Source: a virus. Taken from it: a stretch of 64,000 bases of DNA. Shown here one piece after another: positions 23,366 to 40,395 of the stretch; within the stretch, counting starts at the first letter, position 1, and every line of letters begins with the position of its first letter. Location: the IMG/VR virus record IMGVR_UViG_3300025703_000002, positions 1-64,000 of that record. One strand, given 5' to 3'. The position numbers and the translations under genes were made by a program. The notes under the pieces are model-generated. The model did no database searches. It was not told the DNA's origin and saw nothing but the letters and a program-made list of their open reading frames with translations.

Positions 23366-26104
23366 TTACCCAAAATAATGAAGCCTTCGTGACTGTTGTT
23401 TCTCGGGGCCGTACAGGAGCCTCTCGATACTCTGATGGCTCTCGTCTTTACGCTTGGCTAGATCCATTCTGCGGAGATGGATAATCCCGTTTATCATCGC
23501 GTCGGCGAGATCGTCATGAGCCCCACGGGGAAGAGAAGCAAGTTCGTCTTCTACGGGTTGAGCCCAGTCAGTGTCAGGACGCCAGATCAAACCATCGGCA
23601 AAAAGATGTTGGACTGTGTACGCCCTCGCAACCTTGTCCATCCGGCCTGGGTCGTGTAACGCGACTGTCCAGGGTTCTCGGGAGAACAGCCGCCTCATTT
23701 CCTGTTCGACAGATATACCAGAGGCTTTGTTCTCTATGATTAGTTTATCGACCTTGAACTTTCGGCAGTCGGCAGCAAGATGCTCGACGACTCCCCAGTT
23801 CTGTCTTTTCCGCTCCTCGAACTCTTCCTTGGTCTCTCCGTGCATCTTGACGATGTCGGTCCTACCGTGGAGGGTTAACCTCTTGTGCCACGCATGGATT
23901 AACATCAGACGAGGAGTACCGAACTGTTCTGAGTACCTTTGCTCTTGAGAGGTTTCTACCCAGGCCCCGATGATAACTAAGGCTGAGTAGTCGTTCTCTT
24001 TCTTCTCAGTAAAAGCGGTATCGGCAGAGGCTAGAATAAACTCGAAAGGTGGGAACAACCCAGGCTTGACATCGTTGGCAGCCATAGCCTCCCGGTCCCA
24101 GATCTTCCAGTAGTCCCTCTTGATAATGCCGCCACCACGAGGCTCGGGCCGTTGTTGGTACTGACCTGCCCAAAGGTAGGGGCGGGTCTTATACGGGCCT
24201 AGGACGGAATCAGGATACTTCTCCGGCCACGCTAGTTCGCCGTCGTAGGTCCTAGGGTCTTTCCACCCGATACTCGTTTCACACCTTGGTTCCTGGAATT
24301 CCATCGGAACGCAGTTACCGCTTACTGAAACAATACCATTTCGGCGAACTACGAGAGCGGTAGAAGGAACACTAACACAGTATACAGTATCGTCGTAGGC
24401 AACGGACTTTATATTCTCCTTCCGAATCTTTGTATACCACTTCCTCGGAAGACCCTCCATTTTACTCGTATGAATATAAAGGGTATAAATAAACCCCCCT
24501 GGAAGAATGTATCCATTGAAGGGCCTCTCCGGAATCTCCCGTCTTTTTTTACTCGCCGCCCAACCGGATTTGATACAACATTCTTGGATACCGTCTATCA
24601 ACCTCTCTGAACGAGAAGACATTGTCAATCCGTTTCCATTTCGTCCCGCTGCACAACCATCACCTTTGACGAACGTAATGATAAAGAGTTTCAATAGGTC
24701 GGGGGAGAGACTCCGAATTATCGAGGGTACATATTTAGTATGAGAATTCCCTAATGGTTCTAATGCCTCTGCGAGACTCTTACTACCTATTGCAAACTCA
24801 AGACAGCCTCCAGATTTACGGAGGGACTTTCGGAAATCGAATGGAGAATTAATCAGAATTTGTTCGATCTCGTCTGCTAAGACCCCTGGCTTTTGAATGA
24901 TACGGGTACAGCAAGACTTGACACTAGAGCATCCCTCACTCAGATACCATCCCATAAACTCGGCGAGAACTGATGATTTCCATATTTGACCCCCGAACAT
25001 AATTTCTTCGGTGTCTGACCCCTTCCAGTTGACTGCTTGAGGGATATAGAAATCTTTCGGAAGATCTCTTGCAGGGGCAACACGCCAATCTGTTTTTTTA
25101 TTAATCTTCCAATCATTCGGGATTTTATAAAGCATACGGTGGTCTGGGGTGACGAGAAGATCAGATGAGTTTGAAGAGTAATGAATCATTTCGCCAGTAT
25201 ACTTGTACGAAATGTACTTTGTGGGGAATTCCCACTGAGCTTGAAGAGTCTTGGGATTAACCGCTAAAATCTCGGAACAGACGACATTGTCTGGATTTAG
25301 ATCTGAAAACTTTACCCATCCACAGCGAGTTAGAACTTCAGTCTCTTTGTCATAACAAAGATGTTCGTAATTGGGGTATTCCTCGATGATTACCCCAGAG
25401 ACGTCTGACTCGTTGACCCTCTGGCCGAGGACGATAATAGCTCCGTCAGCGAGATCGTTCAGACGGTTCTGCATACTCTCTCGGAACCAGGTTACGGTGT
25501 CTCCCCGGACAAGTTCAGACTCTGCCTCAGATACTTTGTGGAGATCGTCAGCCAGAATTCTGTCGCCGCGCTCACCAGTTCCAACGCCCCCGACACTAGA
25601 AGCAAACTTCCAGCCTCGTGCTGTGTTAGATATTCGTCCAACGCCTTCTTTTGTGACACGAACGAGTCTTCCATACAGCTCCTGGTATTCTTGAGATTGG
25701 ACGAGATAGCAGAATTTCTCGTTGTCGCGCTCTGTAAGGGTTGAAGAGTACGAGAAGGAAACATACCGTAGATCGGGTCTCTCTCGGGGTCCCCATTCCC
25801 ATGCCGGGAAGAAGACGTTAAGCATCATGGATTTCATGAAGCCGGGGGGGACGTTAATTAGGAGTCTCTTAAGGTCTCCGTCTGAGATCGCTTCTAGATG
25901 CTCTGCTATCGCAGCGATACACCAGCCTTCGACAAAAGGAATAACTGGCTCTAGGACGTGCCAGAAGTACCGGATGAACTCAATTAAGCTGTCGCGGTGC
26001 AAGGCCCGCAACGATCTGAGTTCTGTCTCCCTCGTCGCTCGGGCTAATTCGAGCAACTCTCTCCTCGATAAAGGCTTTGAGTTCAATGTCAGATAACCTA
26101 TCAA
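23366..26104 (-). CDS. Large terminase subunit with in-frame intein
   Basis: A 912-residue precursor. After removing the intein (residues 250-597), 564 residues remain, a normal TerL length. The ATPase domain has NVPPGFMKS (Walker A, about 84-92) and RILADDL (Walker B). The nuclease domain has LASADTAFTEKKENDYSA, LIIENKASG and HDDLADAMING, giving the Asp/Glu/Asp metal ligands. It cuts and pumps DNA into the prohead through the portal. The start is uncertain: TTG at 26104 has GGAG only 3 bases away and overlaps TerS by 125 bp. Another in-frame TTG lies downstream after an AGGAGAGAG site. Confidence 0.88.
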   Translation of the reverse strand: MIGYLTLNSKPLSRRELLELARATRETELRSLRALHRDSLIEFIRYFWHVLEPVIPFVEGWCIAAIAEHLEAISDGDLKRLLINVPPGFMKSMMLNVFFPAWEWGPRERPDLRYVSFSYSSTLTERDNEKFCYLVQSQEYQELYGRLVRVTKEGVGRISNTARGWKFASSVGGVGTGERGDRILADDLHKVSEAESELVRGDTVTWFRESMQNRLNDLADGAIIVLGQRVNESDVSGVIIEEYPNYEHLCYDKETEVLTRCGWVKFSDLNPDNVVCSEILAVNPKTLQAQWEFPTKYISYKYTGEMIHYSSNSSDLLVTPDHRMLYKIPNDWKINKKTDWRVAPARDLPKDFYIPQAVNWKGSDTEEIMFGGQIWKSSVLAEFMGWYLSEGCSSVKSCCTRIIQKPGVLADEIEQILINSPFDFRKSLRKSGGCLEFAIGSKSLAEALEPLGNSHTKYVPSIIRSLSPDLLKLFIITFVKGDGCAAGRNGNGLTMSSRSERLIDGIQECCIKSGWAASKKRREIPERPFNGYILPGGFIYTLYIHTSKMEGLPRKWYTKIRKENIKSVAYDDTVYCVSVPSTALVVRRNGIVSVSGNCVPMEFQEPRCETSIGWKDPRTYDGELAWPEKYPDSVLGPYKTRPYLWAGQYQQRPEPRGGGIIKRDYWKIWDREAMAANDVKPGLFPPFEFILASADTAFTEKKENDYSALVIIGAWVETSQEQRYSEQFGTPRLMLIHAWHKRLTLHGRTDIVKMHGETKEEFEERKRQNWGVVEHLAADCRKFKVDKLIIENKASGISVEQEMRRLFSREPWTVALHDPGRMDKVARAYTVQHLFADGLIWRPDTDWAQPVEDELASLPRGAHDDLADAMINGIIHLRRMDLAKRKDESHQSIERLLYGPEKQQSRRLHYFG
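24314..25357 (-). mobile_element. LAGLIDADG intein inside the large terminase gene
   Basis: Residues 250-597 of the terminase frame (348 aa). The N-splicing block begins with Cys (CYDKETEVLTRCGWVKFSDL) and block B is SSDLLVTPDHRML. Two LAGLIDADG-type helices (EFMGWYLSEG and IITFVKGDG) mark a homing endonuclease. Splicing blocks F and G are TVYCVSVPSTALVV and NGIVSVSGN, followed by extein Cys. The penultimate residue is Gly instead of the usual His before the terminal Asn. Insertion is after the extein sequence NYEHL, directly before CVPMEF, in the conserved ATPase core. Codon use is more AT-rich than the flanking terminase. Confidence 0.9.
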
Positions 26105-27363: not shown

Positions 27364-27479
27364 GTGGGCCTGTCACTGAGTCGTCCGGATATGGTGTGGT
27401 TAGGCCCATAATCCGGGGAGAGTATTGCTCCCTAGGGATATAACCGAACCCCCTTAGAACGATCTAGTGACAGGCCCAC
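27364..27479 (-). ncRNA. Structured late-leader RNA element B (14-bp closing stem)
   Basis: A 116-nt element closed by a perfect 14-bp inverted repeat (27364-27377 with 27466-27479). It holds a second 10-bp helix with one bulge (27385-27394 with 27406-27416) and a TCCCTAGGGA palindrome. A further 7-bp hairpin abuts it (27478-27484 with 27491-27497). It is transcribed about 95 nt downstream of the late start site and holds no ORF. Possible roles are antitermination, leader stability or a packaging-related RNA. Confidence 0.55.
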
Positions 27480-27551
27480 ATCTCGTAAAGGAGATGTTAG
27501 TCCATTGTTGCCACAAGAATCCCTAAGTGGGGTATGAAGGTTATCTTCCGA

Positions 27552-27573
27552 AGAGTTACAATCAATTAACTCT
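27552..27573 (-). promoter_or_regulatory. 5-prime hairpin at the late transcript start
   Basis: A perfect 7-bp stem (27552-27558 with 27567-27573, loop of 8) begins at or next to the predicted late transcription start. The early transcripts also start with small hairpins, so this probably protects the mRNA 5-prime end. Confidence 0.5.
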
Positions 27574-27580
27574 ATAGATA

Positions 27581-27609
27581 ATTATATCATATTTTGGAGA
27601 CAAAGTCAA
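27581..27609 (-). promoter_or_regulatory. Late promoter, sigma70-type with extended -10
   Basis: On the minus strand, TTGACT (27604-27609), a 17-bp spacer and a consensus TATAAT (27581-27586) preceded by TGA, giving an extended -10. It faces the whole leftward late operon and is by far the best promoter match in the window. The very AT-rich upstream region (27613-27750) may act as an UP element. Confidence 0.8.
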
Positions 27610-27980
27610 CCCCTAAATCGACGAAATCGTAAGAAAAGTACAAAATAATACAAAAAAGATATAAATTTTATATCGGAGGATATATTTCTGGTGTGTTTCT
27701 ACGGAAAGGTCGAATATTTTCCCAAAGTATATAAAAATTTTTACACAGAGCTGAATTGGAGTACCCGGCCCTAATAGAGGGGGGTACGGGGGGTCATCCC
27801 AAATCCCCTCCTGTGACATTCTTGCCACTAGAGAACATTCAGGGAACAATGCCCTAGCTTCCGGTCAGGACGAAGAGAAGACGAGTAGAACATAAAGAGA
27901 ACATGAGGCGAACCACAGTGACTCTTCAATGCTTTGACCTACACGACGACGCTAAGACCTAGCCCTAGTCATGTGCTAGA
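27610..27980. other. AT-rich divergent control region with operator-like palindrome
   Basis: About 370 bp without a supported gene separates the late and early units. It has a perfect 17-bp palindrome (27658-27674, gatataaa-t-tttatatc) 49 bp upstream of the late -35. It also has A/T runs to about 27750 and a GTACCC/GGGTAC hairpin (27761-27766 with 27782-27787). It is a plausible site for a repressor or activator of late transcription and could also hold a replication origin. No direct iterons are seen. Confidence 0.4.
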
Positions 27981-28291: not shown

Positions 28292-28346
28292 TTGACATTC
28301 CCTAGGAGCCTGCTATTCTCCTGATATTGCTTCACCTTGGAGCAAT
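28292..28346 (+). promoter_or_regulatory. Early promoter P1 with leader hairpin
   Basis: TTGACA (28292-28297), a 16-bp spacer and TATTCT (28314-28319) preceded by TGC, an extended -10. A 6-bp hairpin follows at once (28326-28331/28341-28346) with CACCTT in its loop, then a CCGG/CCGG stem. A small palindrome ATACC-T-GGTAT (28248-28258) lies upstream and could be an operator. It drives the first early genes. Confidence 0.7.
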
Positions 28347-28397
28347 CCGGTTATTCCGGCTCTTCCGGTCTTAGCCCGAATTGTGCAGGAGGCCCTA

Positions 28398-29484: not shown

Positions 29485-29941
29485 CCTTCGTCGAGATCGC
29501 CGACTCCGCCAAGACTCCATCCCCGTCAGAGAGCTTGATAGGGTTGACGCCCTCGACCGCGAATCTTCGGTCCCGATGGCGTCTTGCTCTAACTGGCTAG
29601 TCAAAGGCTTCAAAGGAGGCGAGCGAGGAGGGACTAAGGGCTCGGGTAAAAAGGTCGGCGACGGGGTCGAAGCTAGGAACGCCTCTAGGAGTGGCTACCG
29701 TGACCGTGAGGAGCAATTCGCGGTCCTTAAGGCCAATGTCCTAGACCTTCGGCGGAAGCTCGCCAGAGATCCCCAGAACGCCGTTTTGATCCAGTTAAAC
29801 AAGCGGCAGACGGCTACGCTCCAATGGCTTGCCGAATTGATCGCCTCGAAAGACAATCTCATACGGGCCACGGTATCCCGCGACAAAACGGAAACACGTT
29901 CCGACCAGTTACAGCCTATCAAACGCCTCGAAAGGATTTAA
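29474..29941 (+). CDS. Basic early protein, 155 aa
   Basis: Start ATG 29474 (a GTG at 29465 is also possible). The N-terminal half is rich in Arg, Gly and Lys and probably disordered (KGFKGGERGGTKGSGKK). The C-terminal half is an amphipathic helix pair (EEQFAVLKANVLDLRRKLAR, LQWLAELIASKDNL). A nucleic-acid-binding protein is plausible. No family is recognised. Confidence 0.45.
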   Translation: MTFNLRRDRRLRQDSIPVRELDRVDALDRESSVPMASCSNWLVKGFKGGERGGTKGSGKKVGDGVEARNASRSGYRDREEQFAVLKANVLDLRRKLARDPQNAVLIQLNKRQTATLQWLAELIASKDNLIRATVSRDKTETRSDQLQPIKRLERI

Positions 29942-29942
29942 G

Positions 29943-30152
29943 ATGGCAGACCTTAAATATCCACCTTGCGCTTGCACGTTTGTTTCGATCGGCAAGCCTC
30001 TAAAGACAAATGGGTGTAAAATCCACGGCGATCTCCCCTTTCTTTGTTCGGAGTGTTCCTGTTCCGAGTATCGGCCTTCGAGGGCACCATTCGACCGCTC
30101 GCCCTGGCCTTTGTGTTCATGCGGCCATACCGCCCAGGATCACACGGCATAA
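29943..30152 (+). CDS. Cys-rich small protein, probable double zinc site
   Basis: A 69-residue protein with nine Cys: CAC near residue 9, C at 25, the C-S-E-C-S-C group and C-S-C-G-H at the end, plus His residues. The GHTAQDH end resembles small zinc-binding treble-clef or ribbon proteins. It may bind zinc and contact host proteins. Confidence 0.5.
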   Translation: MADLKYPPCACTFVSIGKPLKTNGCKIHGDLPFLCSECSCSEYRPSRAPFDRSPWPLCSCGHTAQDHTA

Positions 30153-30168
30153 CCAAACCTTTTAGACC

Positions 30169-30809
30169 CTGCCTTAATTATGCCATATTAGGGTGATTTA
30201 AGGCAGTCCTAAGCGGTCACGGTGTAAACCGGAAGATGCTTTTAAGACTGGGCCTAGGCAGATACCTAGGGAATGTGATCTAGGCTACGTGCCAGTGTTC
30301 TGTTTGTCTATGTGTGGTAAGGATATAGTCCTAGGAATATAGTCCTAATAGGATTTACCTAGAACGTACCCCGGAAACCAGGGCGTGCCCGAAAGGTCCG
30401 CTTAGTAACTTCCGCCACATGAGTCCGATAGCTTTCTGGATAGCTCGGTCTCGCAAGAGGCCACCGCGCAAGTTGACACCTTGTGCAGCCACGCCCCTAG
30501 ATCAATCGGGTTATTCCCGCCTGCCAGTAGGATTCGTCCCGCTGGCGGACAGAGTAAGTTAGGCTCTGTCAGCGCAATCTTTGTCCTTTGCGTGTTTCAC
30601 GGCGTCTAAGTCGCAAGATGATAGTCGCTTGTTTAACGTGCATTTAATTGGGGGGATAGGGTGAGGGCAATAATCCTACATGCTACATTTGACCTTTCGG
30701 GGTCGCTGGCGTAGCATTAAACCGTTAGCGTCCCAAGACCCAGGGGCGGACTTGTCAGGAGTAGGTCCGGGTTCAGCGTCCTAGTCTTCTAACGGTTTAA
30801 TCCTATGCC
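30169..30809 (+). ncRNA. Candidate large structured RNA 2 (about 640 nt, 12 stems)
   Basis: No ORF of note lies between 30153 and 30925. Stems read in order: 30169-30177/30198-30206 (9 bp), 30253-30258/30265-30270, 30316-30320/30355-30359, 30425-30433/30442-30448, 30447-30452/30457-30462 (GCAA tetraloop), 30466-30472/30480-30486, 30507-30510/30516-30519, 30521-30527/30542-30548, 30548-30554/30564-30570, 30572-30577/30588-30593, 30691-30694/30701-30704, and a 21-bp stem 30708-30728/30789-30809 with one mismatch. Five stems contain G-U wobbles valid only for the plus strand. Size and style recall the large ornate phage RNAs (GOLLD, ROOL), but I cannot assign it to either. Confidence 0.6.
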
Positions 30810-30843
30810 AGATAAAAATAGTTTGGTTTAGGGAAAATAGGGC

Positions 30844-30882
30844 TTGACACATCCGGTTAAGTCCTTATATTCGTATCACCTT
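30844..30882 (+). promoter_or_regulatory. Early promoter P2
   Basis: TTGACA (30844-30849), a 16-bp spacer and TATATT (30866-30871). The ACCTT motif seen after the other promoters follows at 30878. It lies directly after structured RNA 2 and drives the 236-residue early gene. Confidence 0.65.
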
Positions 30883-30988
30883 CAAGTGGCATAGCGTTTA
30901 GGGCATTTTTAGTGTCTTAGACCCTATGCCAAGGCTTAGGGGCGGTTCAATCCTGATCCGTCGTTTCGCTAAAAGTAAGGTTACGCAA

Positions 30989-31699
30989 ATGTCTGTTTTC
31001 AAAGATATCAAGATTCTCGACAGGTCACTCGTGACTTTCGGGCGTACCTACAAAGAAAATCGGGAGCTTGCTCACGATCTTGCCGTTTCGGTGATGTATC
31101 ACACTGCGGCGCACCGTCAGCTCTCCCCTAAGGATCGGTCAGACAAGCTTCACCGCTTTTACGACATTCTGAAAAAGGCCGATCAAGACGCTTTCCGCCA
31201 ATGGGCTTCGGCGCTTGTCACTTGGAAGATCCAAGAGAACGGCAAGGAAGTGACGAAGCGTTGGCTCTCAGGCTCGCGTGACGAAGCCGGACTCTTTGCC
31301 TTCAAGATCATCGAAGGGACAAAGGTTCAATCGGATCAATTCGCGGCAGATATCGACCGTATTGATTCTCTGCCGAGTTTCTTCGATCATGAACCCTCAA
31401 GCCGGCCTCCGGGATTTTTTGGAGATACAGAGCTTCTAAAGGCTCTGAAAAATCTTTTAAAGAAAGCCTCGGACGGGCGGAAAGAAAATCGAATCTCTGA
31501 CACGGTTTTCAACATCGTCGAGATCGCCGAGCTGCAAATCGAGAAGAGCCTGCAATCGACCGGAAGGCCTCTAGGCGAGAGTCAACCGGCTTCAATCGTT
31601 CCTCCGGCGGACCTTTCGAAAGCTCAAGAATCTCAAGCCAAGACTGCCCGTCACGGTGGCAAGGCTCTTGAGGCGAAAGAGGAAAAGGTTGCGGCTTAG
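30989..31699 (+). CDS. Early hypothetical protein, 236 aa
   Basis: Start ATG 30989 (MSVFKDIKILDRSLVTFGRT) is preferred over the more upstream 30926. AAGG lies a few bases before it and the upstream residues look like untranslated leader. The protein is highly charged and mainly helical, with a folded-looking N-terminal 110 residues and a Lys/Glu/Ala-rich tail (AKTARHGGKALEAKEEKVAA). It has its own promoter and terminator, so it is an abundantly made, separately controlled early product. It could be a nucleic-acid-binding or host-takeover protein. No family is recognised. Confidence 0.6.
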   Translation: MSVFKDIKILDRSLVTFGRTYKENRELAHDLAVSVMYHTAAHRQLSPKDRSDKLHRFYDILKKADQDAFRQWASALVTWKIQENGKEVTKRWLSGSRDEAGLFAFKIIEGTKVQSDQFAADIDRIDSLPSFFDHEPSSRPPGFFGDTELLKALKNLLKKASDGRKENRISDTVFNIVEIAELQIEKSLQSTGRPLGESQPASIVPPADLSKAQESQAKTARHGGKALEAKEEKVAA

Positions 31700-33525: not shown

Positions 33526-33672
33526 ATGAACCTTCAGGAATACCTTAAGGCAGACCGGCAATGGCCTAGATATCTGAGGATATCCCACGCCCGGCATAAG
33601 CTTAAGATCTCTGAGACCGTCGAGGACAAGATTTTCTGGAATGCCGTCCTTTTGGCAAATTACAGACATTAA
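33526..33672 (+). CDS. Small basic protein, 48 aa
   Basis: ATG 33526 shortly after TAGGAG. The product (MNLQEYLKADRQWPRYLRIS...) is rich in Arg, Lys and Trp and ends HKLKISETVEDKIFWNAVLL. A DNA- or RNA-binding role is possible. It ends 6 bp before the tRNA-like RNA. Confidence 0.45.
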   Translation: MNLQEYLKADRQWPRYLRISHARHKLKISETVEDKIFWNAVLLANYRH

Positions 33673-33678
33673 CAGTTT

Positions 33679-33795
33679 GGTGCGGCCTCGTCGGGAGGGG
33701 CGTGGTTCGAGTCCACGGGAAGCTTGGAGGGTTGGCGGTTCGATTCCGTCACTGTAGGGATGGTCCCATAGAGGTTCGATTCCTCTCCCGCACCA
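33679..33795 (+). ncRNA. tRNA-like RNA with three T-arms
   Basis: A 7-bp outer helix (33679-33685/33788-33794, then A) with the final bases GCACCA resembles a tRNA acceptor. Inside are three perfect T-arm hairpins of 5 bp with 7-base loops: 33701-33717 (loop TTCGAGT), 33734-33750 (loop TTCGATT) and 33770-33786 (loop TTCGATT). Two small extra stems are 33686-33689/33695-33698 and 33757-33759/33765-33767. No anticodon or D arm of normal length is present. It looks like a collapsed tRNA array or a tRNA mimic, and is not a normal tRNA gene. Confidence 0.55.
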
Positions 33796-33844: not shown

Positions 33845-34756
33845 ATGGAAGCAGACGTTACCGGGGAGGCAGTCTCGTCTGCCTTAAAGTTCCTCGAACA
33901 GGATTCAAAGAAAAGTGGAGCACTAAACCGGTGGTCTTTTGTTCATCCCAGTGGAAAAAGATTTGATCGTTCCGGGCCGTGTTTTTGGGAACTTAGACCT
34001 GAAGCAAACAATCGTGAGGTGTCGCCCCCTACCGGATGTCTCACTGTGACCTATTCGGGGGGACACGGCGCGTATTCAAACGGAGTTAAGTACGAATATG
34101 GCGACGACTCCAAAGATTTTGTTGAGTTTCTTGTCGGTCCTGAGAGTCCGTGGAGATCTTCATTAGTTCCGTTTCTGGTTTTTAAAGATCCTAAGAAGAT
34201 CTTTGACGATCGCGGGTTTATCTTCGGAAATCTCTCCGAGATTAACTTCCTCGTCTTAAAGAACTTCTTGATTGCGACACGGATGTGCATGGAGTTCCCG
34301 AATAAGTTCCAGGTGATGAAGACTTTGATCTCTAAAGGAGTCTCAAGATTTGACTCTTATATTACGGCTCAGAGCTTCTCGACAGTAGGCGGGACATTTA
34401 ACGTGTCATATCAATCTGGACACGAACCCTTCTCGTCCCACGAGATGGCACTCCTTATCGATCGACTTCGATCAGGAGAGGTTAACGGGACACACAAATC
34501 TTTTTATGGTGGCAAGGAGATTAAGACTGTTTCGTGTTTTCTGTCATTTTCGTCGCCGTTTTATTCCGAGATCCCTCGGCAGATAAAATCGATCTATGAC
34601 GTGTCCTCGCCTTCTCTAGAGGTTCTTCTTAAATACGCCAAGTCCCTTAGTGATAATGTCCCGGAAGTTTCCGGAACACCAGAGCCACGAAAGAAGCGAA
34701 TGCCTGTCTGTATCAATCGAGGGCCCTTCGAGGCTAAAGAGGAGATTGACTTTTGA
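33845..34756 (+). CDS. First protein of the amidoligase cluster, unknown, 303 aa
   Basis: ATG after ATAGGAAAATAA. The N-terminal region (VHPSGKRFDRSGPCFWELRP) and middle (TGCLTVTYSGGHGAYSNGVK, ILVLKNFLIATRMC-like helix) have no family I recognise. A polar C-terminus ends KKRMPVCINRGPFEAKEE. The gene ends with a TTGA overlap with the GATase gene, so it is translationally coupled. It may be the substrate or a scaffold of the amidoligase pathway, or an extra modifying enzyme. Confidence 0.5.
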   Translation: MEADVTGEAVSSALKFLEQDSKKSGALNRWSFVHPSGKRFDRSGPCFWELRPEANNREVSPPTGCLTVTYSGGHGAYSNGVKYEYGDDSKDFVEFLVGPESPWRSSLVPFLVFKDPKKIFDDRGFIFGNLSEINFLVLKNFLIATRMCMEFPNKFQVMKTLISKGVSRFDSYITAQSFSTVGGTFNVSYQSGHEPFSSHEMALLIDRLRSGEVNGTHKSFYGGKEIKTVSCFLSFSSPFYSEIPRQIKSIYDVSSPSLEVLLKYAKSLSDNVPEVSGTPEPRKKRMPVCINRGPFEAKEEIDF

Positions 34757-35400
34757 AGAACAGTGTTTACGTCGTCGATGGAGATTATCTTATCGAGAAG
34801 ATGTTTCGGAAACGTGGGTACTTCCTTACAGACACCCCTGACGGGGCGGAAATCCTAGTTTTTACTGGAGGTCATGACGTGACTCCTAGTTATTACGGAA
34901 TGGGCCGTCATCCGACTACGTCTAACTCTGAGGCCAGAGATTCAAGGGAGAAGACGTTCTTTCTCGAATCAGAGGGAAAACTTCGTGTCGGAATCTGCCG
35001 GGGATCTCAGTTCCTTTGTGTAATGAACGGCGGAACGCTGTATCAAGACGTTGATGGCCACTGTAACGGCCCACATAATCTGATTTATACAGACGACACC
35101 GGGAAAGACTCCGTCATCACGGTCACGAGTACACATCACCAGATGATGCGACCAAGCTATGCTGCCGATCCTAACGGTGGCTACAACTACCGTCTTTGGG
35201 GTTTTGCTGCTGAAAGTTCGTATCGCAATTTTGAACCCCGAGACCACCAAAAACCGACTCAATCCGAGGAAGGTCCTGACTCGGAGATCGTATTTTTCCC
35301 CGAGACTCGTTCGTTATGCTTTCAGGGCCATCCTGAGTATGACCTTAAATCCTGTGAAGACCTTTTCTTCTCCTGTCTTAATCGCGCCCTTTCGTATTAA
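34753..35400 (+). CDS. Class I glutamine amidotransferase / peptidase C26-like
   Basis: A 215-residue protein from a TTG start. The nucleophile elbow RVGICRGSQFLCVMNGG gives catalytic Cys82, and the C-terminal FQGHPEY supplies His and Glu of the triad. It either releases ammonia from glutamine for the ligases or hydrolyses gamma-glutamyl bonds. The fold is known from phage amidoligase clusters. Its position directly before a class II amidotransferase and two ligases supports a joint pathway. Confidence 0.75.
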   Translation: MKNSVYVVDGDYLIEKMFRKRGYFLTDTPDGAEILVFTGGHDVTPSYYGMGRHPTTSNSEARDSREKTFFLESEGKLRVGICRGSQFLCVMNGGTLYQDVDGHCNGPHNLIYTDDTGKDSVITVTSTHHQMMRPSYAADPNGGYNYRLWGFAAESSYRNFEPRDHQKPTQSEEGPDSEIVFFPETRSLCFQGHPEYDLKSCEDLFFSCLNRALSY

Positions 35401-35415
35401 TCAAAGGATTTCTGA

Positions 35416-36720
35416 ATGTGTGGACTTACAGCAGCATACGCGTCTGATCTTCGTTTGAATGAGCTTGGAGTTCTTAGGACTCTTCTCCAATTGTCTGATT
35501 TCCGGGGCGGCTACGGGGCAGGTGAAGTTTCGGTTAACAAGAAAGGCGAGATTCATTTCATTAAAGATCATTTCTCTGCCTATGATCTTGTGAATACAAA
35601 GTCATTCAACGACCGAATGAAAGAAGATATCTCCCTCGTCATAGGTCATTCTAGATACCCTACAAAAGGCAAGGAGAATCGGACTAACGCCCATCCCCAC
35701 AGTACCGCAAAAGTCATCGGGGTCCATAACGGGACGATGCAGGCCGTGATGGAGAAGCCTGTGACGTCTACCGAGAGCGATTCAAAGACTCTCTTCGAGG
35801 CTGTATCTAATTTTGGCATCGAGGAGGTTATCTCAAAATCTCCTGGGGCCTATGCGTTAATGTGGGTCGATAAAGAAGCCAAAGAATTCAGGATTCTCAG
35901 AAACCACGAGAGACCACTTTTCTTCGCCAAGATTAAACCGTTTGTGAGTTCAAAAGACAATGAATTCCGAAGTCTCTTTCTCTCGTCTGAGAAACGTATG
36001 CTTCAATTCGCTCTTGACCGACACGGCCTTCTCAACGAAGCGGTTCTAGGAGAGGTTATCACGAACAAGATGATTTGCTTTCCTCTGTGTCCCGAACCAG
36101 GGTTTCTACCCGAACCTACGGCAGTAATTATCCCAGAGTGTAGAAGGCACTACTATTCGAAGTCGTCAGAATGGTATAAAGATCGTGAATGGGATTCAAC
36201 GACGCATTCGTTTATAGAACACAACGAAAATCGAATGACGTGGCGAGACGGTCAATTCTATGACGTAACTCCGGCCGGTGTCGAGATTCCTTGGTCGAAG
36301 CAGAAGACTGCTGCTAGTCCAGTTACTGGCGCGGGGAAGAACGTCGTCCTATTCGGTTCTAAGGCGGATACGGCAATTCCGACCCCTCTTGAGAAGGAGA
36401 TTCTTAGAAAGCAAAAGCTTCAATTTCCCGACGATGCAAAAGTCTCTCTTCCAGACATTGGAGTCGAGACAGATTTCTCAGACGAGTCGATTCTCCTTAA
36501 AGAGACTTCTAAGGGAAATTGGGTGGCGTTGAGGGTATACCAAGAATACCTCGAATCAGGATGCTCGTGGTGTTCTAAACCGTTGTCTCTCCACGAGGCG
36601 AGGAATAAGAAAACAGCTCCGCACTTCTTCAGTAAGGCTGAATTTTTGTGCTCAGACTGCCAGAAATCCGAGGATGCTTCGTACCTAGTCGGACTTGATT
36701 ATACAAAGGCCCTTCAATGA
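35416..36720 (+). CDS. Class II glutamine amidotransferase (Ntn hydrolase)
   Basis: A 434-residue protein. The N-terminal MCGLTAAY gives the nucleophile Cys2 after Met removal. VIGHSRYPTKG, NAHPH and GVHNGT are the conserved glutamine-binding motifs, so it should hydrolyse glutamine to glutamate and ammonia. The C-terminal 200 residues are not a synthase domain. They end in a small zinc site (CSWC and CSDC). Thus the ammonia must go to another protein, presumably an encoded ligase. Stop and next start overlap as ATGA. Confidence 0.8.
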   Translation: MCGLTAAYASDLRLNELGVLRTLLQLSDFRGGYGAGEVSVNKKGEIHFIKDHFSAYDLVNTKSFNDRMKEDISLVIGHSRYPTKGKENRTNAHPHSTAKVIGVHNGTMQAVMEKPVTSTESDSKTLFEAVSNFGIEEVISKSPGAYALMWVDKEAKEFRILRNHERPLFFAKIKPFVSSKDNEFRSLFLSSEKRMLQFALDRHGLLNEAVLGEVITNKMICFPLCPEPGFLPEPTAVIIPECRRHYYSKSSEWYKDREWDSTTHSFIEHNENRMTWRDGQFYDVTPAGVEIPWSKQKTAASPVTGAGKNVVLFGSKADTAIPTPLEKEILRKQKLQFPDDAKVSLPDIGVETDFSDESILLKETSKGNWVALRVYQEYLESGCSWCSKPLSLHEARNKKTAPHFFSKAEFLCSDCQKSEDASYLVGLDYTKALQ

Positions 36721-37523
36721 TTCTAACGATCGGTGCAGACCCTGAGGTTTTTGTTCGTCTCGAGGATAAATTCATATCCGGGCATACATTTCCGTGCGGC
36801 TCAAAAGAATTTCCAAGGAAATTGGATTCAGGATCGGTTCAAGTCGATGGCCTTGCTTTAGAGTTCAACGTTCTTCCCTCAGAGACTCGTGGAGAATTCG
36901 TAGACAATACGATTAAAATCTATCGAGACTTAAACAGTCTCGTGAAGTCTATTAATCCCCGAGCATCGCTAGAGGCAATTCCTACGGTTGTCTTTGGTGA
37001 AGAGTACCTGAAATCTCTCCCTAAGGAGGTTTCTCGCCTCGGGTGTAATCCAGATTTTAATGCGTATACGATGTCAGAGAATCCAGTTCCTGACTCTGAG
37101 CAACCGTTTCGGACAGGAGCTGGGCATGTCCATATCGGATTTACAAAAGATGCCGATCCGAGTTCGATGGAGCATTTACAGGTATGCTCTGAATTAACGA
37201 AAGAACTCGATTACTTTCTAGGTCTTCCGTCTCTTGCATGGGATTCTGATGAAAAACGAAGATCCTTGTATGGAAAGCCAGGAGCTTTCAGACCAAAATC
37301 TTACGGAATGGAATACCGCGTCTTGTCTAACGCGTGGCTTCGGTCCAGATCTACAATGGAAATTGTTTACGATCAAACGGTCAGATGTGTCGCTAGAAAG
37401 TTTTCTTCGAAGAAGAAGCCTCTTTATGAGAAGTACGGAGACCTAGCGAAGACTCTGATAAATGAAAATCAGGTCTCGTGGATGAAGGGATACCAAAAAG
37501 TTTCTAACGATGTTTTTAATTAA
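36717..37523 (+). CDS. Phage COOH-NH2 ligase type 2 (amidoligase)
   Basis: A 268-residue protein beginning MILTIGADPEVFVRLEDKF, the hallmark start of the type 2 phage COOH-NH2 ligase family (glutamine-synthetase-like fold). It also has SVQVDGLALEFNVLPSETRG, GAGHVHIGF and GMEYRVLSNAWL, which supply the metal- and ATP-binding acids and His. It should join an amine to a carboxylate using ATP. It overlaps the amidotransferase gene. Confidence 0.8.
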   Translation: MILTIGADPEVFVRLEDKFISGHTFPCGSKEFPRKLDSGSVQVDGLALEFNVLPSETRGEFVDNTIKIYRDLNSLVKSINPRASLEAIPTVVFGEEYLKSLPKEVSRLGCNPDFNAYTMSENPVPDSEQPFRTGAGHVHIGFTKDADPSSMEHLQVCSELTKELDYFLGLPSLAWDSDEKRRSLYGKPGAFRPKSYGMEYRVLSNAWLRSRSTMEIVYDQTVRCVARKFSSKKKPLYEKYGDLAKTLINENQVSWMKGYQKVSNDVFN

Positions 37524-37536
37524 TTAAGGTCTCAAA

Positions 37537-38736
37537 ATGGCGATAAAGAAACTTCGGCCCCGAGTAGATTGGGACCCTTTTAGACCGGCCCCACAGCCGG
37601 CCGGAAATCCAAACTTTCAAGCTCCCATAGGCGGTTGGATTCAGCAGGTTCCTGTTCCTCTTGACGATCCTAACCCGTTCGGGATAGAAGATGTCCAACG
37701 GCAACTAAATGCTTATGTGGATAGAGTTTTTGAATACCCGGCAATTCATCCCCAGGCTCATTTTCAGATCCACGAAGACGAAGATCTAGAAAATCCAGGT
37801 GATCCTGGTCCATGCCCTGAATTTCTTATCCGTCCTGAGGGGTTGTCTCTAGACGAGACGATGGTTCTTAGTGCGTGGAAGAAGGACAGACAGAGGTATC
37901 TAGTTGATCTCTCGAAACAACCTGAGCCCCTTCGTGACGACTACCACCGAGAAGAGAACTGGAAACGGGTCTATAACGACTGGCTTCTAGCGGGGGGTCA
38001 AGTCCGTCCGCCTCAAAGGATCTCTGATCCGGGTATGATTAAGAGACTAAAAGCCCGTGGGGAAGCAACTCCAAGATTCTCTTTACCGTATACCCCCGAG
38101 GAAATGAGACTTCGTCTCCGTGGGACTATCGTAACGATTGACGACCGACCGTGTTATGTCTCAGAGGCTGGAGGGAACGTTCGCGACTCTGAACATAATG
38201 TTGTCGCTCCGGGATTGTATGTTATGTACTCGGATACAACAGTCTCTTGTCTCGTTCCTCGTCTCCACGTCCTAGACTTTCGGCCGTTTGAGCCAGGGTA
38301 TATTCAGAGGCATCCAGAGTTTGCTGAATTCTATCTGCGACATCCCGCAAGAATCTATCGTCAAGGAATCCATCCAGAGAACTCTCAGATGCTTGATGCC
38401 GTAACAGGGTATTCTAAACCAATACCGTCTCGTTCCGGAGAGATCTGCAAGCTCTTAAAGGCGTTCGAGGATCGAAATGAAACATCGAATCTAACGAAAG
38501 AGACTATAGCGAGACTAACGGAGATCTATAAACAGACCTCTGGGACACTCTGCCCGTCTGCCCGATTGTCTAATAAAGTCGCGGCGACGATTAAGGATAA
38601 AACCCAGAAGATTCATGTCCTATTTAAAGGGGTATCTTGTTGTGTCTTTGATTCTGAGAGAAATCCTCGATTTGATGAGAACTTCTGCTCGTTGCCGTCG
38701 GTTCGAGAAGAACTCTGGTCCGTCGGGATTAAATAA
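37537..38736 (+). CDS. Unknown 399-residue protein in the amidoligase cluster
   Basis: A basic and proline-rich N-terminus (PFRPAPQPAGNPNFQAPIGG), a middle with many charged helices, and a small beta module (GTIVTIDDRPCYVSEAGGNV, YVMYSDTTVSCLVPRLHVLD) near residues 205-255. No catalytic motif is recognised. It lies between the two amidoligase genes in the same polycistron, so it is a candidate substrate, carrier or scaffold for the modification. A virion-associated role is also possible. Confidence 0.5.
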   Translation: MAIKKLRPRVDWDPFRPAPQPAGNPNFQAPIGGWIQQVPVPLDDPNPFGIEDVQRQLNAYVDRVFEYPAIHPQAHFQIHEDEDLENPGDPGPCPEFLIRPEGLSLDETMVLSAWKKDRQRYLVDLSKQPEPLRDDYHREENWKRVYNDWLLAGGQVRPPQRISDPGMIKRLKARGEATPRFSLPYTPEEMRLRLRGTIVTIDDRPCYVSEAGGNVRDSEHNVVAPGLYVMYSDTTVSCLVPRLHVLDFRPFEPGYIQRHPEFAEFYLRHPARIYRQGIHPENSQMLDAVTGYSKPIPSRSGEICKLLKAFEDRNETSNLTKETIARLTEIYKQTSGTLCPSARLSNKVAATIKDKTQKIHVLFKGVSCCVFDSERNPRFDENFCSLPSVREELWSVGIK

Positions 38737-38755
38737 TTCCTAATAGGAGGTTCGG

Positions 38756-39628
38756 GTGTTTTCTGACGAGATCAAACTCCAGATGTTTAAACAGCCATGG
38801 ATTGAAACGGTACAACGTGGGGCTCAAGAGGGAGAACTCAGACCCCTCCACGAGTATGACAAGGATCGTCTCTTCGGTATCGAGATTGAACTAGAAGGAT
38901 TGGAATTCCCTCAAAGAGTCCCCGGATGGATGGCGCATAACGAGGGGAGTCTCCGGGGCGGTGGAATCGAGTACGTCACAGACGGTCCCGTGACATTCGA
39001 AGGAGTCCATAAATACCTGAAGTCTTTGAACTCAAAACTTGTCGCAAACGGGTCGAAAATCCGAGAGACATACAGGGCGAGTACCCATATCCACTATAAC
39101 GTTCAGAATAGAACGTTAGACCACATTCTGAAATCGATAATCGTCTTTATGTGTTACGAGCCGTTGATCTGCGAACTCTGTGGTCCGGAAAGAAATGGTA
39201 ATCTTTTCTGCCTTCCGACGTATGACTGTGGAGACATGACGTTATGGCTTCAGGAGTTTTTAAAGAAACTTTCGGGCCCCGCAAAGACTCTTGTACCATT
39301 TAGATATCTTCAGAGAGGGAAGTATTCGGCACTTAATACCGACCCGTTGACTAAATTTGGGACGCTTGAATGTCGAGTCTTCCCGAGTACAATTAATGTC
39401 GATGCGATCTATTCCTGGTGTTCGTGGCTTCATGAGATTCTGGGGCAGCCTATTGATAGTGTCTCAGACTACGTGAGGTCTCTAGAGGGCTCTGCGTTTA
39501 ATCCCAGAGGAGAGATCTCTAGGATCTTCAAGGACGCTGAACTCCCCGGACACGCAAGGTCTTTGATCGGATTCGGAACAGAGCAGGCGTGGCCTCTAGC
39601 CATGGTATACGAAAGGGCTTTGAAATGA
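38756..39628 (+). CDS. Amidoligase enzyme (second of the cluster)
   Basis: A 290-residue protein from a GTG start after ATAGGAGG. It has family motifs FGIEIELEGLEF, NEGSLRGGGIEYVTDGPV, ASTHIHYNV, KYSALNTDPL and FGTLECRVFPST, the usual phage amidoligase set. The Glu pair in IEIELEG and the His pair should bind metal/ATP. It probably catalyses another amide bond formation. It overlaps the ATP-grasp gene. Confidence 0.8.
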   Translation: MFSDEIKLQMFKQPWIETVQRGAQEGELRPLHEYDKDRLFGIEIELEGLEFPQRVPGWMAHNEGSLRGGGIEYVTDGPVTFEGVHKYLKSLNSKLVANGSKIRETYRASTHIHYNVQNRTLDHILKSIIVFMCYEPLICELCGPERNGNLFCLPTYDCGDMTLWLQEFLKKLSGPAKTLVPFRYLQRGKYSALNTDPLTKFGTLECRVFPSTINVDAIYSWCSWLHEILGQPIDSVSDYVRSLEGSAFNPRGEISRIFKDAELPGHARSLIGFGTEQAWPLAMVYERALK

Positions 39629-40395
39629 TCCTTCATTCATACAATCGGGGGGAGGGTATAAAAGATCTCAGAGCTGCCTTAGAGGCCCGTGGAGAGCACA
39701 CGGTAGTCCTAGACCGTAAACCGATGCGGAAGCGGCCTATGGTCGTCTGCTGGGGCTCTAAACTTATTGCCTACAACCGGGAAGGATGTTTGTTTCTCAA
39801 TCCCCCAGAAGTTACGAAGGTTTTCAGCAACAAGTTGTCTTTCTTTCGCCACGTCGAGAAGAAGTTCGAGAACGATCCGTATCCTTGTCCGGAGTGGACA
39901 ACTGATCCCGAGGTCGCTAAGAACTGGCCGGTGACTGTTGCTCGTCACGTCATAGACGGATCAGGAGGCGAGGGGATCGAGCTTGTTGAAGTCGGTCAGG
40001 AGATTCCTAAAGCCCCGTTGTATACGAAGTATCAGAAGAAGACTTCTGAATATCGTGTCCATGTCTTTAAGGTTCAAGGGGCCTTCGAGATTCGACACAT
40101 TCAGAAAAAGGTCGCCAAGGACAATGGAGAAGAACACAATTTTAAGATTCGAAACCTAGAGAACGGGTTTGTTTTCCAACAGAATAACTTCGAGACCCCA
40201 GAGGCCGTGACAAAGTTGTCAACAGAATTTATGAAAGACTACTTTCCGGAGATTGACTTCGTGGCTCTAGACGTGATATACTCTAAGAAAGAGAATCGTG
40301 CCTTTGTCCTTGAAGGGAATACTGCACCGGGGCTTCAAGGGAAAACTGTCGAAATCTATGTAGACTATCTCCTAGAGAGAAAGAGGATGCGATGA
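39625..40395 (+). CDS. ATP-grasp ligase
   Basis: Start ATG 39625 (MILHSYNRGEGIKDLRAALE), overlapping the stop of the amidoligase gene as ATGA; 256 residues. ATP-grasp motifs are present: PVTVARHVIDGSGGEGIELV (glycine-rich loop), YTKYQKKTSEYRVHVF and FVLEGNTAPGLQG (metal/ATP ligands Glu and Asn). It should form a carboxylate-amine bond via acyl phosphate. Together with the amidoligases it is likely to act on a shared peptide or small molecule. Confidence 0.8.
   Translation: MILHSYNRGEGIKDLRAALEARGEHTVVLDRKPMRKRPMVVCWGSKLIAYNREGCLFLNPPEVTKVFSNKLSFFRHVEKKFENDPYPCPEWTTDPEVAKNWPVTVARHVIDGSGGEGIELVEVGQEIPKAPLYTKYQKKTSEYRVHVFKVQGAFEIRHIQKKVAKDNGEEHNFKIRNLENGFVFQQNNFETPEAVTKLSTEFMKDYFPEIDFVALDVIYSKKENRAFVLEGNTAPGLQGKTVEIYVDYLLERKRMR

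What the first reader, a model, noticed from the sequence alone, without database searches (positions are those of the whole stretch)
30169..30809. Gene-free 640-nt block packed with stems: candidate large ornate phage RNA
Twelve clean helices follow one another with few gaps, including a GCAA tetraloop hairpin and a 21-bp stem with only one mismatch. Several stems need G-U pairs that exist only on the plus strand. The block lies between early promoters and lacks ORFs. Size, density and phage context resemble large RNAs such as GOLLD and ROOL, but I recognise no conserved family motif, so it may be new.
Basis: partly seen in the sequence, partly recalled or inferred. Interest (0 to 1): 0.8.

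Follow-up and report, generated by a model that had tools for sequence, protein, structure and literature searches.

The report
Orphan structured intergenic block in phage
Between two groups of early genes, an uncultivated phage carries a roughly 680-base stretch without genes that folds far better than chance and whose two ends pair with each other; it could encode a large noncoding RNA, but no relative exists in the searched databases, so this is an untested candidate rather than a shown RNA.

Summary
The observation mostly holds. Window 30151-30828 has no gene, fills the gap between a stop codon (30150-30152) and the next promoter (-35 at 30844), and folds as RNA at -252 kcal/mol (z -4.6, 0 of 250 shuffles). 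No other segment tested in this window folds as well (lowest of 76 is -3.3). I add an 8-bp stem, AACCAAAC/GUUUGGUU, that pairs the two ends. The strength is uneven: one 106-nt arm (30706-30811, z -6.8) carries most of it, and without that arm z drops to -2.2 (+) and -3.0 (-). The signal is equally strong on both strands, so the G-U argument for the plus strand fails for the block as a whole. Nothing matches Rfam, and GOLLD and ROOL give no match even at E<=10. No homologue turned up in annotated phages, plasmids, or about 1-2 Mb of portal-gene relatives, so covariation cannot be tested. Best reading: the noncoding tail of the first early transcript, possibly released as a ~680-nt RNA. Rivals are independent mRNA hairpins or a DNA-level palindromic element. 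It is an interesting orphan candidate, not an established ornate RNA and not a member of GOLLD or ROOL.

The parts
28292..28319 (+). promoter-like site P1 (TTGACA-16-TATTCT, 10/12), upstream of the small early genes that precede the block
   Evidence: consensus match only
29943..30152 (+). last small ORF before the block (69 aa, Cys-rich); its stop codon TAA 30150-30152 overlaps the first bases of the closing stem
   Evidence: z -4.65 on +, -5.33 on -, 0 of 250 shuffles each; background minimum -3.3
30151..30158 (+). 5' arm of the closing stem, AACCAAAC, pairs with 30821-30828
   Evidence: P 0.94 in the ensemble; an 8-bp Watson-Crick stem between the ends occurs in 0.3% of shuffles, post hoc
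30821..30828 (+). 3' arm of the closing stem, GUUUGGUU
30169..30206 (+). first hairpin CUGCCUUAAUUAUGCC...GGGUGAUUUAAGGCAG
   Evidence: z -3.56; no U-tract after it, so not an ordinary terminator
30276..30504 (+). central domain closed by the long-range helix UGAUCUAGG (30276-30284) / CCUAGAUCA (30496-30504) plus CGUG/CACG
   Evidence: P 0.93; z about -3.1 on both strands
30447..30462 (+). GCAA tetraloop hairpin
   Evidence: P 0.98
30505..30690 (+). third domain with hairpins 30522-30547, 30548-30570 and 30589-30642; the only part of the block with a plus-strand bias
   Evidence: z -3.09 on +, -1.27 on -
30706..30811 (+). 3' arm: 22-bp stem with one C.C mismatch, branched top
   Evidence: z -6.79 for 30704-30813, 0 of 200 shuffles; P 0.99; carries most of the block's excess stability
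30844..30871 (+). promoter-like site P2 (TTGACA-16-TATATT, 11/12) of the next early transcription unit, 15 bases after the block
30887..30931 (+). leader hairpin of the P2 transcript; its lower stem UGGCAUAG-C...C-CUAUGCCA repeats that of the 3' arm (UGGCGUAG-C...C-CUAUGCCA)
   Evidence: leader 30878-30990 z -4.9, -0.9 on the minus strand; CCTATGCCA occurs exactly only at these two places in the window
30992..31699 (+). gene after P2 (235 aa from the likely start; weak match to phrog_1448, unknown function)

Best explanation
The block is the noncoding 3' part of the first early transcript of this phage (from P1 at 28292 through the small genes ending at 30152). It folds on the plus strand into one large branched RNA of about 680 nt, whose ends are clamped by the AACCAAAC/GUUUGGUU stem and which may be cut out or left as a stable 3' end before P2 starts the next unit. 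Shown: no gene, excess folding energy, ends that can pair, position between stop codon and P2. Inferred: that it is transcribed, that the plus strand is the functional one, that it acts as a single RNA, and that its role is like that of other large phage RNAs (an abundant structural RNA made during infection).
For: 0 of 250 shuffles fold as well, and it beats all 76 comparison segments of the same length. The terminal stem and the long-range 9+4-bp helix of the central domain are predicted with P 0.93-0.94, and a terminal 8-bp Watson-Crick stem arises in 0.3% of shuffles. The structure fills the entire interval from stop codon to the next -35 box. The 30505-30690 domain and the P2 leader fold better on + than on -. 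No coding potential. Precedent: ICP1 makes an abundant ~800-nt noncoding transcript from an ORF-less gap, in a phage without tRNAs (PMC7567579).
Against: No homologue, so no covariation. The minus strand folds as well relative to shuffles. One arm supplies most of the signal. No sigma-70-like promoter directly upstream of the block and no intrinsic terminator after it. Single-sequence folding of ~680 nt is unreliable in detail.
Confidence: 0.42

Rival explanations
1. A string of separate mRNA hairpins, not one RNA: transcript-end and processing or stabilising structures between two early units (the 106-nt arm at the 3' end of the P1 transcript, the matching hairpin at the 5' end of the P2 transcript), with the sequence in between only mildly structured.
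For: Most excess stability lies in 30706-30811 (z -6.8), and the rest alone has z -2.2 on +. The P2 leader hairpin 30887-30931 is strongly plus-strand specific and shares its lower stem with the 3' arm. Intergenic hairpins that affect transcript ends and stability are known in phiEco32-like phage 7-11 and T4 (PMC8948821).
Against: Sub-domains 30276-30504 and 30505-30690 have z about -3.1 by themselves, although their borders were chosen from the fold. Ends pair across 680 nt. 690 nt is long for a spacer in a phage whose genes mostly abut.
Confidence: 0.27
2. A DNA-level element: a palindrome-rich regulatory, replication or packaging site whose hairpins matter as double- or single-stranded DNA, with RNA folding a by-product.
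For: Excess folding is equal on both strands, as expected for DNA palindromes. Lambovirus phages of Gordonia have a 330-nt palindromic intergenic block next to primase/polymerase with z -7 and paired changes, which looks like an origin, so such signals need not be RNA. TGGCRTAGC occurs 5 times in the window against 0.3 expected.
Against: No iterons or ordered repeat array in 29900-31000. G+C is average. The AT-rich stretch with divergent promoters and a strong inverted repeat is at 27.36-27.75 kb instead. 30505-30690 folds better on +.
Confidence: 0.21
3. Minus-strand RNA or antisense transcript over the same block.
For: Minus-strand z -5.33. An 11-bp perfect long-range helix at P 0.99 exists in the minus fold. 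A weak promoter-like site on - at 30932-30905 (9/12).
Against: It would run antisense into the early genes. The late promoter-like site on - at 27609-27581 is downstream of the block. The plus strand is the coding strand on both sides.
Confidence: 0.06
4. Neutral intergenic sequence with one or two strong hairpins, left over from gene decay.
For: Helix count is ordinary. Without the 3' arm the z-score is only about 1.6-1.9 sd below the genome's own background.
Against: No residual reading frame and no similarity to any phage or plasmid DNA. Energy of the whole is outside the background.
Confidence: 0.04

Closest known systems
GOLLD RNA (RF02032)
   Same: Large, branched, gene-free block in a phage genome; a tRNA-Ser lies 2.8 kb downstream (33669-33759).
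   Different: No match to the family model even at E<=10. Shorter than the >800 nt of many members (PMC12286853). Not inside or next to a tRNA array. No homologues, so no shared 3' region.
ROOL RNA (RF03087)
   Same: Similar size range and phage setting.
   Different: No match to the model, though no control genome rang for ROOL. Pseudoknotted P1-P19 layout not testable.
ICP1 ~800-nt noncoding transcript (PMC7567579)
   Same: ORF-less phage interval of similar length between gene clusters, without a tRNA cluster.
   Different: The ICP1 RNA is shown by RNA-seq to be the most abundant phage transcript; here no expression data exist.
Lambovirus (Gordonia phages Xenia2, DumpTruck, Yikes and others) intergenic block after DNA primase/polymerase
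   Same: Gene-free, very stable fold, and a 40-nt stretch 85% identical to window 30354-30393 (E 0.2).
   Different: The shared 40 nt forms a perfect hairpin there but not here, and its second half is not conserved among the Gordonia phages. Taken as chance. That block is palindrome-rich and looks like an origin.

Membership tests
GOLLD RNA | match to the GOLLD covariance model | tested here: not met
   cmscan; RF02032, no match at E<=10 in the whole record
GOLLD RNA | location beside phage tRNA genes (common, not universal) | tested here: not met
   one tRNA-Ser, 2.8 kb away; no tRNA in the last 7.8 kb of the record (L118)
GOLLD RNA | transcribed and accumulating during lytic growth | not testable with these tools
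   no RNA-seq
ROOL RNA | match to the ROOL covariance model | tested here: not met
   75 (RF03087, no match, but no control genome rang)
large ornate noncoding RNA (as a kind) | long gene-free block with more stable folding than shuffles | tested here: met
large ornate noncoding RNA (as a kind) | secondary structure supported by covariation among homologues | tested here: inconclusive
   no homologue found to align
large ornate noncoding RNA (as a kind) | discrete, abundant transcript from one strand | not testable with these tools
   no expression data; thermodynamics does not choose the strand
other Rfam RNAs (introns, HEARO, riboswitches and so on) | match to family model | tested here: not met
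   cmscan at E<=10 gave only implausible low-scoring hits

The most novel reading that the evidence does not exclude
The block encodes a single ~680-nt ornate RNA of a class unrelated to GOLLD, ROOL or any Rfam family, made from the early region of a phage with few close relatives, with paired ends and several domains, possibly assembling into a large RNA-only particle.
Probability: 0.22. Interest if true: 0.75.

Novelty: new member of a known kind. Interest (0 to 1): 0.4.

Why it matters
GOLLD and ROOL show that phages make very large RNAs of unknown purpose, some of which form cages. An unrelated RNA of this size from another phage lineage would suggest that such RNAs arose more than once and would give an independent way to find out what they do. 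As it stands the block is only a candidate, because it has no known relatives and no expression data. The case also warns that strong folding in a phage intergenic block is not by itself evidence for RNA: palindromic DNA gives the same signal on both strands.

Tried and rejected
(1) Rfam at gathering and at E<=10: nothing plausible. (2) GOLLD and ROOL models on the whole record: no match. (3) blastn of the region in phages and plasmids: none; block alone at E<=5: one 40-nt hit in Gordonia phage Xenia2, E 0.2, followed through eight Gordonia phages and judged chance, because the pairing there is different and half of the stretch is not conserved. (4) Neighbouring proteins as anchors: the 257-aa and 158-aa neighbours have no relatives in viral contigs or phages. 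DNA polymerase and amidoligase find only fragments of the same phage (3300001408) plus one 30%-identical amidoligase relative, G018. The DNA polymerase finds nothing in genome contigs. (5) Portal gene: 80+ relatives at 43-75% identity, none with a significant match to the block by blastn, nhmmer or the whole-record search. Single-sequence covariance models of two sub-domains found nothing at E<0.1 in 0.98 Mb of kin. (6) A repeated hairpin motif (CAATCSGGTTATTCCSGC, 28343 and 30503) was searched in all viral contigs: two matches inside genes, taken as chance. A 17-mer from an unpaired stretch: none. (7) Synteny with G018: its gaps near the amidoligase cassette are structured but not similar in sequence. 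(8) Intron or decayed gene: no frame, no family.

Full report
What was checked. The window is bases 1-64000 of a 67,840-base IMG/VR virus record. Left of about 27 kb lie late genes on the minus strand: terminase, portal (SU10 portal family) and major head protein. Right of 28 kb lie early and replication genes on the plus strand, with a peptidase C26, glutamine amidotransferase, amidoligase and S6-glutaminyl-transferase cassette, primase/helicase and DNA polymerase. This opposed layout resembles phiEco32-like phages (PMC8948821).

The block. Between the stop codon of a 69-aa ORF (30150-30152) and a promoter-like site with TTGACA at 30844 there is no ORF longer than 47 aa wholly inside, and stop-free stretches are as in shuffled sequence. 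Folding 30151-30828 gives -251.9 kcal/mol on + and -236.1 on -, with z -4.65 and -5.33 against 250 dinucleotide shuffles each, none of which reaches the real value. Seventy-six segments of the same length (38 places, both strands) have mean z -0.5 (+) and -0.9 (-), and the lowest is -3.3. In scans of 150-nt pieces averaged over 750 nt the block ranks 6th of 422 on + and 13th on -, so it is high but not unique at that scale. What sets it apart at full length is its long-range pairing.

Anatomy. A Watson-Crick stem of that length between the two ends arises in 0.3% of shuffles (3.3% for the equivalent with G-U), and the test was made after seeing it. Inside are a hairpin at 30169-30206 (z -3.6), a central domain closed by UGAUCUAGG/CCUAGAUCA plus CGUG/CACG (30276-30504, P 0.93), a third domain (30505-30690), and a 3' arm of 22 bp with one C.C mismatch (30706-30811). 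The GCAA hairpin is at 30447-30462. The 10-nt complement between the loop 30389-30398 and the hairpin 30691-30700 could form a pseudoknot or an alternative helix (inference).

How strong is it? The 3' arm alone has z -6.8. Without it, 30151-30703 has z -2.2 on + and -3.0 on -, only 1.6-1.9 sd from the background. The domains 30276-30504 and 30505-30690 have z about -3.1 each on +, with borders chosen from the fold. The number of perfect local helices is ordinary. The statement that twelve helices in a row are exceptional is therefore not supported, while the statement that the whole folds unusually well is.

Strand. Both strands fold about equally well relative to shuffles. G-U pairs are 27 of 222 on + and 21 of 196 on - (which stopped at its time limit after printing these values). 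Only 30505-30690 and the leader after P2 favour the plus strand. Orientation is therefore inferred from the neighbouring genes.

Relatives. None was found. Blastn in 50,697 phage and 72,556 plasmid records at E<=1e-5 is empty. About 90 portal-gene relatives, including whole records of up to 64 kb, give no significant match by blastn, nhmmer, whole-record search or single-sequence covariance models. Neighbouring early proteins have no relatives to lead to syntenic loci, and the DNA polymerase finds only a fragment of the same phage in viral contigs. The single weak hit, 40 nt in Gordonia phage Xenia2 (E 0.2), lies in a gene-free block with z -7 after primase/polymerase. Eight Gordonia phages share that block with paired changes in 20 of 71 predicted pairs. 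The matching 40 nt form a perfect hairpin there but not here, and half of them are not conserved in that group, so I treat the match as chance. That block, rich in CGGTACG palindromes, looks like a replication origin (inference) and warns that such folding signals can be DNA features.

Family tests. No Rfam family matches at gathering level or plausibly at E<=10. GOLLD and ROOL give no match at E<=10 in the record (for ROOL no control rang). GOLLD and ROOL are described as often near tRNA islands (PMC12286853); here one tRNA-Ser lies 2.8 kb away. It is therefore not filed under either. What it could work like is a separate matter: ICP1 makes an abundant ~800-nt noncoding transcript in a phage without tRNAs (PMC7567579).

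Judgement. Most likely the block is the noncoding end of the first early transcript, possibly a discrete ~680-nt RNA (0.42). Next come separate mRNA hairpins at the junction of two early units (0.27) and a DNA-level palindromic element (0.21). The repeated lower stem UGGCRUAG-C/C-CUAUGCCA in the 3' arm and in the P2 leader hairpin, differing by a G.U to A-U change, fits either of the first two readings. The claim of a new ornate RNA class remains open (about 0.22) and depends on expression data and homologues.

Noticed in passing
window 27364-27479: Strong inverted repeat GTGGGCCTGTCACT...AGTGACAGGCCCAC with a branched top, z -5.4 to -6.7 on both strands, beside an AT-rich stretch (about 27540-27750) with divergent promoter-like sites: a better origin or operator candidate than the block, or a small RNA. 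No match in phages.
   Followed up: partly
window 30887-30931: Leader hairpin of the P2 transcript, z -4.9 on the plus strand only, with the same lower stem and C.C mismatch as the block's 3' arm.
   Followed up: partly
window 24300-25355: The terminase large subunit ORF (912 aa) carries about 350 extra residues that relatives lack (563-578 aa there); a thymidylate-synthase PHROG matches residues 241-348 and terminase families match in two pieces: probable intein or other in-frame insertion.
   Followed up: partly
L135 2482-2817 and L136-L142: Gordonia phages (Lambovirus) share a ~330-nt gene-free palindromic block after DNA primase/polymerase, z -7, with 20 of 71 predicted pairs showing paired changes: candidate replication origin or unnamed RNA.
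   Followed up: partly
L018 2713-3560 and 5290-5826 (record G018): Another phage with the amidoligase cassette has gene-free, well-folding blocks (z -2 to -6) at a similar distance upstream of that cassette, unrelated in sequence to this one.
   Followed up: partly
window 34753-40395: Cassette of peptidase C26, glutamine amidotransferase, two amidoligases (COOH-NH2 ligases) and an S6-type glutaminyl transferase; the first amidoligase is 45-48% identical to that of Pseudomonas phage PA11 and relatives.
   Followed up: no
window 28335-28360 and 30495-30520: Two copies (81%) of a stretch containing CAATCSGGTTATTCCSGC in the P1 leader and in the block; the small hairpin keeps its loop while one stem pair is swapped (C-G to G-C). 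Could be chance.
   Followed up: partly
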